Assembly: GCA_027004335.1 (NCBI GenBank)
Contig: JALTID010000021.1
Coordinates: 1-5,341 of the forward strand
From: JALTID01 sp027004335 [NCBI: bacterium]
GTDB lineage: Bacteria > JALSQH01
Direction of reading: 5' to 3'
Length of the DNA: 5,341 bases
Below the pieces are notes generated by a model that made no database searches, had not been told where the DNA came from, and saw only the letters and a program-made list of their open reading frames with translations. How positions within the stretch are numbered: the first letter of the stretch is position 1; each line of letters opens with the position of its first letter. The translations under genes and the position numbers were made by a program. Of this stretch, positions 1-1,613 are shown piece by piece.

Positions 1-87
1 ACCTAAGGCATTTACTTCAAAAATATCCCGGGAGTCCACTTTAGGGGGAATATAAGGTTTTTTCCCTTTTCTTTCGTCTTTTTTCAT
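1..87 (-). CDS. Short peptide gene, start only (possible ribosomal peptide precursor)
   Basis: Translation from the ATG at 87 gives 29 residues before the window edge, and the frame is still open. The start is lysine-rich (MKKDERKGKK), followed by PYIPPKV and then IFEVNALG at the edge. I do not recognise a named family. From memory, short peptides with a basic start, a PYxPPK-like stretch and an 'E-x-x-A-L-(A/G)-C' segment recur in anaerobic bacteria and resemble leader-core peptide precursors. The expected cysteine would lie just outside the window, so this is only a suggestion. There is no Shine-Dalgarno sequence. The ATG begins 7 nt after a good -10 box, which is why I accept this start and expect a leaderless mRNA. 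It lies 36 nt beyond the stop of the 46-residue peptide gene on the same strand. It could also be the N-terminus of a larger unknown protein. Confidence 0.5.
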   Translation of the reverse strand, partial: MKKDERKGKKPYIPPKVDSRDIFEVNALG

Positions 88-123: not shown

Positions 124-264
124 TTATTTTATGGGTGTAGGTTTTTCTTTTATCCGCATCCTTGGGTTTATGTAACCGACAGTTTTCTTTACTGCCTTTT
201 TGACCTTCATAATTCTTCGTAAGACCCCCATTTTTTTTACATCTACGGTTACATCACCTTTCAT
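124..264 (-). CDS. 46-residue basic peptide, unknown function
   Basis: A small, strongly basic peptide beginning MKGDVTVDVKK. Lysine and arginine run through the middle (about residues 10-27), and a proline-containing tail ends KPTPIK. It has no cysteine, no signal peptide and no membrane segment. The start is fixed by an excellent ribosome binding site, AAGGAGGTGA, a few bases upstream. A longer in-frame start at 312 would overlap the preceding gene's stop and has no such site. It begins 31 nt after the stop of the TusA/FeoA-like gene and is probably co-transcribed with it. The charge pattern would suit binding to RNA, DNA or an acidic partner, but nothing shows which. I do not recognise the family. 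The strong translation signal is the main reason to believe that it is a gene. Confidence 0.6.
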   Translation of the reverse strand: MKGDVTVDVKKMGVLRRIMKVKKAVKKTVGYINPRMRIKEKPTPIK

Positions 265-295: not shown

Positions 296-1243
296 TTATA
301 CTTCTTCTTCAATTATTTTTCTTACCCATATTTTCTCAGCAAGACCCTTTCCCAAAATGATTTCTTTCCCGTTTACTTTCATTACGACGAAATGTCCTGT
401 ATTTTCACCTTCGTGACTTTTTATTTCTTCAACTGAAAGAATTTCTATTTTTTTGTTTATTATTTCTTCTTCTCCTAATTTTTCGAGAAATTCTTTACCT
501 CCAATTATTTTTTTTATTGTTCCCATATTCTCGAGAAAGTTTGACTGGACAATTCCCTTCCCGGTTTCCACCAGAATCTTTGCAGCTTCACCATCTCCAA
601 GAACATATTTGCTTCCATTAATTTTGAATGAGTATGTCTTTTCTACATCATGTCCCTCGATATTAACTTCAACTCCTTCTTCAAGGCCAATTTGTGAAAG
701 AGCTGCGATCATTTCTTCGTTGAGTTTAATACTGTTTATAGTGCCTCTTTCACCTTTTTCCATCTCCAGGAGTTTTCTGTCTCCCACTATTACTTTTTCT
801 GCGATTCCCCTGGGGATCAATAGTTTTTCCCCCTTTATTTTTACCAATAGTGGTCCACTGTGTATATGACTAACTTTTTTTTCTGCTACCTCTGCTACTG
901 TTCCTACAACTATCCCTTGATTATCAAGTTCTTTTGTAACCTGTGCTCCTCCATCAATCCTTGCTATCCTTATTAATGTGCCTTTTTCAACATCAGTGAG
1001 GGGGAAAAGCTCTATCCTTCTAAAGTATCCATGATAAAAACCATCATCTTTTTTTATCACTTCGATGAGTTCTATCGTGCCTATCATCTGGGCCATTTTG
1101 CCAGCAACTTTTGGCATCCTTTCATCATCTGTAATTACTTCGATTACCTCTCCTAATTTTAGCTCCTTGCTTTCCTCTTTTACTATCTGTTGTCTTTCCT
1201 TGACGCTTTTCCCTATTACATTGATTTTATTCTTTACTTCCAT
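296..1243 (-). CDS. TusA-like domain fused to three tandem FeoA-like domains
   Basis: The product has 315 residues and is soluble, with no signal or membrane segment. Residues 1-76 follow a TusA/SirA beta-alpha-beta-alpha-beta-beta pattern (KINVIGKS, helix, LKLGEVIEVITDD, helix, IELIEVIKKDDGFYHGYFRR). The catalytic Cys-Pro-x-Pro is missing, with Val14-Lys-Glu-Arg17 in its place, so sulfur transfer is unlikely. Three FeoA-like units follow at about 86-154, 165-226 and 240-308. Each opens with GT(L/I) and closes with a matching strand: LLIPRGIAEKVIV, YVLGDGEAAKILV and IILGKGLAEKIWV. FeoA is a cytosolic SH3-like partner of the iron transporter FeoB, and related domains also end DtxR regulators. 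No feoB is visible here, so a regulatory or scaffold role is as likely as iron transport. The start at 1243 is set by GGAGGT at 1250-1255. The longer GTG start at 1285 overlaps the promoter and is rejected. The 46-residue peptide gene follows in the same direction. Confidence 0.75.
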   Translation of the reverse strand: MEVKNKINVIGKSVKERQQIVKEESKELKLGEVIEVITDDERMPKVAGKMAQMIGTIELIEVIKKDDGFYHGYFRRIELFPLTDVEKGTLIRIARIDGGAQVTKELDNQGIVVGTVAEVAEKKVSHIHSGPLLVKIKGEKLLIPRGIAEKVIVGDRKLLEMEKGERGTINSIKLNEEMIAALSQIGLEEGVEVNIEGHDVEKTYSFKINGSKYVLGDGEAAKILVETGKGIVQSNFLENMGTIKKIIGGKEFLEKLGEEEIINKKIEILSVEEIKSHEGENTGHFVVMKVNGKEIILGKGLAEKIWVRKIIEEEV

Positions 1244-1253
1244 GCCATTACCT

Positions 1254-1270
1254 CCAAAAATTATTTTTGG
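1254..1270. repeat. Perfect dyad over the transcription start of the TusA/FeoA-like gene
   Basis: CCAAAAAT, one central base, ATTTTTGG: a perfect 8-bp inverted repeat. Counting from the -10 box, it spans about -2 to +15 relative to the predicted start, a classic repressor-operator position. In the mRNA, CCAAAA and TTTTGG can pair around a 5-nt loop, and the closing GG is the start of the GGAGGT ribosome binding site. It could therefore act as a DNA operator or as a weak translational hairpin. It does not match a Fur or Ada box that I know. Confidence 0.5.
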
Positions 1271-1274
1271 TATT

Positions 1275-1303
1275 ATTATACTCACCTAATAAAGTTTTGT
1301 CAA
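1275..1303 (-). promoter_or_regulatory. Perfect-consensus sigma-70 promoter for the TusA/FeoA-like gene
   Basis: On the minus strand, TTGACA (1298-1303) and TATAAT (1275-1280) are both exact consensus hexamers with 17 nt between them. The predicted start is near 1268, giving a leader of about 25 nt that contains GGAGGT and ends at the ATG at 1243. TTAGGT occurs twice in direct orientation (1284-1289 and 1303-1308, minus strand), once in the spacer and once touching the -35. Such a strong promoter usually implies high expression or a repressor holding it down. Confidence 0.8.
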
Positions 1304-1613
1304 CCTAACATCTTTTCCTGGTTAAGACATATCCCCCACCCTAATTTAAAGAAGGCGTTAGAAAAGGAGATTCCCTTAAGCTGGAAAAATAAGAAGAGTT
1401 ATCCTATTATTTCTTCTAACGAATTTGAGACTTTCCATCTGACCCATCTCATTTGTTAAAATATAACCGCAACCAGGATTTAAAAGATATTATTGTGAGG
1501 TACTATCTTATCATATTGTTATGGTGTTACAATTTACCCTTTTATCTCCTCACTAAATTTCTTTAACTCCTCTCAGGTGATTTTACCGCAAAGAAAATCA
1601 TTTAATTTACACC
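1304..1613. other. No intact gene; possible coding remnant at 1301-1459
   Basis: I see no intact gene, RNA gene or clear terminator here. On the plus strand, 1301-1459 reads as about 52 coherent codons ending at TAA. It contains HIPHPNLKKALEKEIP and YPIISSNEFETFHLTH, which look more like real protein than random translation, but there is no start codon or ribosome binding site of its own. It could be the end of a decayed gene. The rest (1460-1613) is AT-rich and featureless apart from a weak 6-bp inverted repeat, GTGAGG (1495-1500) with CCTCAC (1548-1553). Confidence 0.3.

What the first reader, a model, noticed from the sequence alone, without database searches (positions are those of the whole stretch)
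296..1243. TusA-like domain fused to three FeoA-like domains
The sequence shows three internal units, each opening with GT(L/I) and closing with a strand such as IILGKGLAEKIWV, which is FeoA-like. They sit behind a region with the TusA secondary-structure pattern but no Cys-Pro-x-Pro. I do not recall this architecture as described. A cysteine-less TusA fold joined to repeated FeoA folds, without feoB nearby and with a basic peptide gene downstream, could be a sensor or scaffold rather than a transporter part.
Basis: partly seen in the sequence, partly recalled or inferred. Interest (0 to 1): 0.6.

Follow-up and report, generated by a model that had tools for sequence, protein, structure and literature searches.

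The report
TusA-like plus triple-FeoA iron protein
A bacterial protein joins a cysteine-less sulfur-carrier-like domain to three FeoA domains, the small partner domains of the ferrous-iron importer FeoB; several of its relatives sit in iron-import operons, so it is probably an accessory part of cellular iron uptake.

Summary
The 315-residue minus-strand ORF (296-1243) has one TusA-fold domain without cysteine, then three FeoA (SH3-like) domains. Pfam FeoA matches the protein at 6.8e-27 in 3 stretches; TusA is weak by sequence but clear by fold. The architecture is real: an archaeal MAG carries the same four-domain gene, 56% identical over residues 1-310, followed by feoA-feoB and preceded by two perfect TTAGGNNNNCCTAA palindromes. 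The triple-FeoA part alone was found in four more genomes: after feoB in two of one genus (one is Desulfurella acetivorans), in an ABC-transporter operon, and beside FmdE/DUF2325 genes. So 3 of the 6 loci found are feo operons, which moves the likely role from 'sensor or scaffold rather than a transporter part' to an accessory protein of iron import. Triple-FeoA proteins are already in print (PMC8980893: 29 of 28,444); the TusA-like fusion was not found in four searches of an open-access library (the 5 papers listed were not opened). New variant of a known kind. FeoB binding and metal binding are untested.

The parts
296..1243 (-). gene for the 315-aa TusA-like + 3x FeoA protein
1010..1243 (-). 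N-terminal TusA-fold domain, residues 1-78, no Cys
   Evidence: Pfam TusA 9.6e-4, under the curated cut-off; fold matches to TusA; 0 cysteines
779..1009 (-). FeoA domain 1, residues 79-155, with H126-x-H128 in the loop before GP
   Evidence: Pfam 1.8e-11; both His conserved in 5 of 6 homologues
557..778 (-). FeoA domain 2, residues 156-229, with H198 at the same loop
   Evidence: Pfam 7.7e-13; H198 conserved in 6 of 6
311..556 (-). FeoA domain 3, residues 230-311, with H277 and H284 at the same loop
   Evidence: Pfam 2.9e-4, just under cut-off; archaeal orthologue 2.2e-7; at these two alignment columns His is shared only with the archaeal copy
1275..1303 (-). consensus sigma-70 promoter TTGACA-17-TATAAT
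   Evidence: 12 of 12 matches; exact form expected 0.013 times, both strands, in Markov windows
1276..1289 (-). degenerate TTAGGNNNNCCTAA-like box (2 mismatches) over the -10
   Evidence: not significant singly
1295..1308 (-). second degenerate TTAGGNNNNCCTAA-like box (2 mismatches) over the -35
   Evidence: not significant singly
1251..1255 (-). ribosome-binding site GGAGG before the ATG
   Evidence: read from the sequence

Best explanation
The protein is a soluble accessory protein of ferrous-iron import: three FeoA domains on one chain, with a TusA-fold domain that has lost its sulfur chemistry. It is probably made under control of a DtxR-type metal repressor. Its FeoA barrels probably contact the cytosolic GTPase part of FeoB, as FeoA does (stabilising the GTP-bound form in the B. 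fragilis work), so that one chain offers several contacts at once. The cysteine-less TusA domain is probably a docking module and not a sulfur carrier. Shown here: domains, conservation, feo-operon linkage of half of the loci found, and perfect palindromes at the archaeal orthologue. Inferred: FeoB binding, regulation of the window gene, and the role of the TusA domain.
For: Pfam FeoA x3 and FeoA-type barrels in the model. The archaeal orthologue with all four domains is followed, after about 95 bp, by feoA and feoB (Pfam FeoA and FeoB_N). Triple-FeoA homologues follow feoB as the next gene in G234 = Desulfurella acetivorans A63 and in G387. Two exact TTAGGNNNNCCTAA boxes end 11 and 28 bases before the archaeal gene's ATG, and 3 of the 4 exact sites found in that genome stand before feo operons. 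The only exact site in the 2.4-Mb genome of G001, the window's relative, stands before its feoA-feoB. dtxR-family genes are present in 3 of 3 genomes tested (G000, G001, archaeal G408). dN/dS 0.16 (NG86) or 0.20 (YN00) between the G234 and G387 copies. FeoA stabilises GTP-bound FeoB: PMC8980893 (abstract passage).
Against: The window gene itself is not seen next to feoB, and 3 of 6 loci are not feo operons as far as their contigs reach (window, G407, G412). The genome already has ordinary feoA genes beside both feoB genes, so a FeoA function is not missing. G000 has no exact box genome-wide; the window's two boxes have 2 mismatches each and are within chance singly (3 matches, 3.74 expected; Markov p 0.08). 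The gene is rare and patchy: G001, of the same family, lacks it, and so does G386, of the same genus as the two Desulfurella-type carriers. Both archaeal copies (G408, G412) carry one in-frame TAA, so they may be decaying or misassembled.
Confidence: 0.55

Rival explanations
1. A cytosolic Fe(II)/Zn(II) sensor or chaperone: the His residues in the equivalent loops of the three FeoA barrels (H126/H128, H198, H277/H284) together bind a metal ion, and the protein hands over or reports iron independently of FeoB.
For: H198 is conserved in 6 of 6 homologues and H126/H128 in 5 of 6; 0 of the 6 ordinary FeoA proteins printed in that call has HxH at this place; two of the three loops (123-127, 275-283) are low-confidence, flexible parts of the model. 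Stenotrophomonas FeoA was solved with zinc (3mhx, title).
Against: G407 has a single His, at the H198 column; H277/H284 are shared only with the archaeal copy; the domain arrangement is uncertain (pTM 0.51) and I had no model coordinates to measure, so convergence of the loops on one site is not shown.
Confidence: 0.2
2. A general cytosolic regulatory subunit for several metal-linked transporters, not specific to FeoB: the barrels bind transporter ATPase or GTPase domains.
For: In G407 the homologue is the last gene of an NMT1-type binding protein / permease / ATPase operon behind the palindrome TTAGTTTTATCTAA (Markov p 0.011); G412 has it beside FmdE-like and DUF2325 genes.
Against: 3 of 6 loci are feo operons; G407 and G412 lack the TusA-like domain, so they may differ in role.
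Confidence: 0.15
3. The TusA-like domain docks on cysteine desulfurase or another Fe-S partner and so ties iron import to Fe-S cluster assembly.
For: The best fold matches include TusA solved in complex with IscS (3lvj); TusA is linked to Fe-S assembly and iron homeostasis in E. coli (PMC11302051, title and start of abstract in a listing only); the domain is 68% identical to the archaeal one, above the 56% of the whole protein.
Against: The sulfur-relay cysteine is absent; I noticed no desulfurase gene among the window ORFs; interface residues were not compared.
Confidence: 0.1

Closest known systems
FeoA (Pfam PF04023), including tandem FeoA-FeoA and FeoA-FeoA-FeoA proteins counted in PMC8980893
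   Same: three SH3-like FeoA domains in one chain; relatives in feo operons
   Different: added N-terminal TusA-fold domain; His in the loop before GP; not seen beside feoB in the window contig
TusA/SirA sulfur carrier (Pfam PF01206; PDB 3lvj, 1dcj, 3hz7)
   Same: beta-alpha-beta-alpha-beta-beta fold, TM 0.75 by query length to 3lvj_C
   Different: no cysteine at all in the protein, no CPxP, sequence score below the curated cut-off
YeeD/TsuB with YeeE/TsuA thiosulfate uptake (PDB 8k1r)
   Same: a TusA-fold domain working with a transporter; best fold match of the N-domain by E-value
   Different: different transporter; the window domain lacks the cysteine (that TsuB has it is recalled)
DtxR/IdeR repressors with C-terminal SH3/FeoA-like domain (PDB 4o6j)
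   Same: same FeoA-like barrel (Z 14.4 over 76 residues)
   Different: no DNA-binding or Fe_dep_repr match in the window protein

Membership tests
FeoA domain proteins | Pfam FeoA above cut-off | tested here: met
   whole protein 93.8 bits vs 23; domains 1 and 2 each over, domain 3 alone 21.3 bits
FeoA domain proteins | SH3-like barrel fold | tested here: met
   FeoA structures among the best matches
FeoA domain proteins | encoded beside feoB | tested here: inconclusive
   not in the window contig, which ends 295 bp downstream; met in 3 of 6 loci of the family
FeoA domain proteins | binds FeoB / affects Fe(II) import | not testable with these tools
   needs experiment
TusA sulfur carriers | TusA fold | tested here: met
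   eight best PDB matches of the N-domain model are TusA-type chains, two of them so named by recall
TusA sulfur carriers | Pfam TusA over curated cut-off | tested here: not met
   19.4 and 20.3 bits vs 28.6
TusA sulfur carriers | CPxP motif with persulfide cysteine | tested here: not met
   0 Cys in 315 residues; the archaeal N-domain has none either
DtxR-type iron regulon | perfect palindromic operator before the gene | tested here: inconclusive
   met in the archaeal orthologue; the window has only two 2-mismatch boxes; that the palindrome is a DtxR-type site is recalled

The most novel reading that the evidence does not exclude
A single-chain, pre-assembled FeoA trimer that caps a trimeric FeoB, with the three His-bearing loops meeting in a pseudo-threefold Fe(II) site and a dead TusA domain that docks the importer on the Fe-S assembly machinery, so that incoming iron is metered and delivered directly.
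Probability: 0.1. Interest if true: 0.75.

Novelty: new variant of a known kind. Interest (0 to 1): 0.42.

Why it matters
How FeoA acts on FeoB, and whether FeoB works as a monomer or trimer, is still debated (PMC8980893, passages). A natural single chain with three FeoA units is a ready tool to test stoichiometry, and a conserved cysteine-less TusA fold fused to it suggests a physical link between iron import and another module, possibly sulfur or Fe-S metabolism.

Tried and rejected
Rejected: sulfur carrier (no Cys); metal-dependent repressor (no DNA-binding match); chance resemblance (archaeal orthologue with the same four domains). Led nowhere: first genome-contig scan (0 relatives of 63 stretches), viral contigs (0 of 18), plasmids (no match at 1e-5), PHROGs and NCBIfam (none for this protein), Rfam (0 at gathering scores), repeats in 1240-2050 (none). 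PDB by sequence gave nothing at 0.001; best 2k5i at 0.035. Searches of family, order, class and phylum reached only the same 2 genomes. Paper searches that gave nothing usable: 0 papers; 13 listed, none opened; one review, PMC7762939, passages only: it speaks of DtxR/IdeR but gave no operator sequence in what I saw. One search returned only PMC8980893.

Rows dropped before counting the family: of the 10 loci, seven (L029-L035) match only 73 to 144 residues; I read L035 (dtxR-feoA-feoA-feoB by eye) and did not read L029-L034. Of the 5 foreign rows, four (G183, G014, G038, G343) match about one FeoA domain; I read L017 and L019 (feoA before feoB by eye), not L018 and L020. The six loci counted as the family are the window, G408 (=L026), G412, G234 (=L027), G387 and G407 (=L028).

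Box statistics: exact TTAGGNNNNCCTAA is not commoner than its backward control over the six genomes (8 places against 16); its placement is the evidence. Of the 8 places, 4 stand before feo operons (3 in G408, 1 in G001); 1 in G412 lies before a NUBPL iron-transfer NTPase gene, 1 in G412 and 1 in G407 lie inside ORFs, 1 in G408 lies at a contig end. Feo or FeoA3 genes with no good box: C19 feoA of G000 and the FeoA3 gene of G412. The two-box test on the window (0.0005-0.0008) used a spacing chosen after seeing the archaeal pair.

Full report
The ORF. Window 296-1243 on the minus strand encodes 315 residues from ATG 1243, with a GGAGG site at 1251-1255 and a perfect TTGACA-17-TATAAT promoter at 1303-1275 (0.013 exact cases expected in Markov windows). 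The window is the whole contig C21 of a 1.5-Mb, 262-contig genome rated 80.2% complete.

Domains. Pfam FeoA hits the protein at 6.8e-27 with 3 stretches; TusA at 0.0063. Cut into pieces: TusA 9.6e-4 for residues 1-80 (archaeal orthologue 5.1e-4), FeoA 1.8e-11, 7.7e-13 and 2.9e-4 for the three following pieces; the third alone is just under the curated cut-off, while the third domain of the archaeal orthologue is above it. A whole-genome scan at E 0.001 listed only the first two. The AlphaFold model from a 6-row alignment has mean pLDDT 83.2 but pTM 0.51, so the folds are credible and their arrangement is not. VIA-align gives Z 14.4 to the FeoA-like barrel of T. acidophilum IdeR, 13.7 to FeoA 3e19, 12.4 to the YeeD/TsuB part of 8k1r and 11.8 to TusA 3lvj. 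The N-domain alone folds at pLDDT 92.0, and its eight best Foldseek matches are TusA-type chains (E 2.7e-5 to 5.7e-3; two of them, YhhP and TA1414, assigned to the family by recall); methyltransferases with a similar sheet follow from 7.4e-3. There is no cysteine in the protein.

Relatives. In the window's own phylum only two genomes are held; the other (G001) has only a single-FeoA match. Of 386 genomes (own included) one other, G234, matches along the three FeoA domains. In G234's phylum 3 of 25 genomes match at 1e-12: G234, G387 and G407; G386, of the same genus label as G234 and G387, does not. In the archaeal class 2 of 400 match at 1e-15, one of them the starting genome G408. The second genome-contig scan gave 10 loci, of which 3 match along the three FeoA domains: an archaeon MAG (L026, 56% identity, residues 1-310), Desulfurella acetivorans A63 (L027) and a Desulfurellaceae MAG (L028). 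Only the window and L026 have the TusA-like domain (2 of 6); it is 68% identical between them.

Neighbourhoods. Archaeon: TusA-FeoA3, feoA, feoB. D. acetivorans: dtxR-FeoA, feoA, feoB, FeoA3, porin-like gene. G387: feoB, FeoA3, porin-like gene. G407: NMT1-type binding protein, permease, ATPase, FeoA3. G412: FeoA3, FmdE-like, DUF2325. Window: FeoA3, then a 46-aa basic peptide and an ORF running off the contig; on the other strand a methylated-DNA methyltransferase, endonuclease IV, a YwiC-like gene and uvrC. The genome's two feoB loci have their own feoA genes.

Regulation. The archaeal gene has two exact TTAGGNNNNCCTAA palindromes ending 11 and 28 bases before its ATG. In that genome 4 exact places exist; two are these, a third ends 12 bases before another feoA-feoA-feoB operon, the fourth is at a contig end. 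In G001 the only exact place is before feoA-feoB. Over six genomes the pattern is not commoner than its backward control (8 places against 16), so only the placement speaks. In G412 one place lies before a NUBPL iron-transfer NTPase gene. The Desulfurella feo operon and the G407 ABC operon have the looser TTAGNNNNNNCTAA. The window has two 2-mismatch boxes 19 bp apart over the promoter; singly they are within chance, as a pair 0.0005-0.0008 in Markov sequence with a spacing rule chosen afterwards. dtxR-family genes exist in 3 of 3 genomes tested. I read this as probable, not proven, metal regulation of the family; that the palindrome is of DtxR type is recalled.

Conservation. H198 is kept in 6 of 6, H126 and H128 in 5 of 6; H277 and H284 only in the window and archaeon. 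In a small domain tree, second domains group together (support 0.993) and third domains less firmly (0.769), first domains do not form one group, which suits an old three-domain protein without proving it. G234 and G387 copies: 226 of 243 residues identical, dN/dS 0.16 (NG86) or 0.20 (YN00). Both archaeal copies have one in-frame TAA; I cannot tell decay from assembly error.

Literature. PMC8980893 (section 4 read in full, passages elsewhere) counts FeoA-FeoA-FeoA in 29 of 28,444 architectures, and says FeoA-like proteins fused to non-Feo proteins were removed from its data. Searches for FeoA domain + TusA (0 papers), FeoA domains + fused (0), TusA-like + fused + sulfurtransferase + cysteine (4 listed, none opened) and FeoA + TusA + fusion (1 listed, PMC11302051, not opened) showed no such fusion. 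So the triple FeoA is known; the TusA-like fusion seems unreported in this open-access library.

Verdict. A real, rare four-domain protein; new variant of FeoA-type iron-import accessory proteins; mechanism inferred.

Noticed in passing
window 124-264 (-): 46-aa basic peptide with a strong ribosome-binding site directly downstream of the gene; no Pfam, NCBIfam or PHROGs match for the longer ORF 124-312.
   Followed up: partly
window 1-87 (-): ORF starting MKKDERKGKKPYIPPKVDSRDIFEVNALG and running off the contig; reminds me (recall only) of short precursor-like peptides.
   Followed up: no
L016:1190-1640: In D. acetivorans a stretch of roughly 144 bp, the end of feoB plus the start of the triple-FeoA gene, is repeated about three times in tandem, with one N; duplication or assembly artefact (read by eye).
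   Followed up: no
L026:9604-9606 and L040:2035-2037: Both archaeal copies carry one in-frame TAA at different places.
   Followed up: partly
L014:319-2013: G001 ORF of 564 aa with DUF1858 and two DUF2249 stretches joined to a region with a weak binding-protein match.
   Followed up: partly
L040:2250-3146: FmdE-like protein with a C-terminal hydrophobic stretch beside the G412 triple-FeoA gene, followed by DUF2325.
   Followed up: partly
L021:7573-7785: 71-aa Cys-containing, FeoC-like (by eye) ORF heads the Desulfurella feo operon behind TTAGATTTATCTAA; no Pfam match.
   Followed up: partly
L047:1501-1532: In G412 an exact TTAGGNNNNCCTAA place lies just before a NUBPL iron-transfer NTPase gene.
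   Followed up: partly
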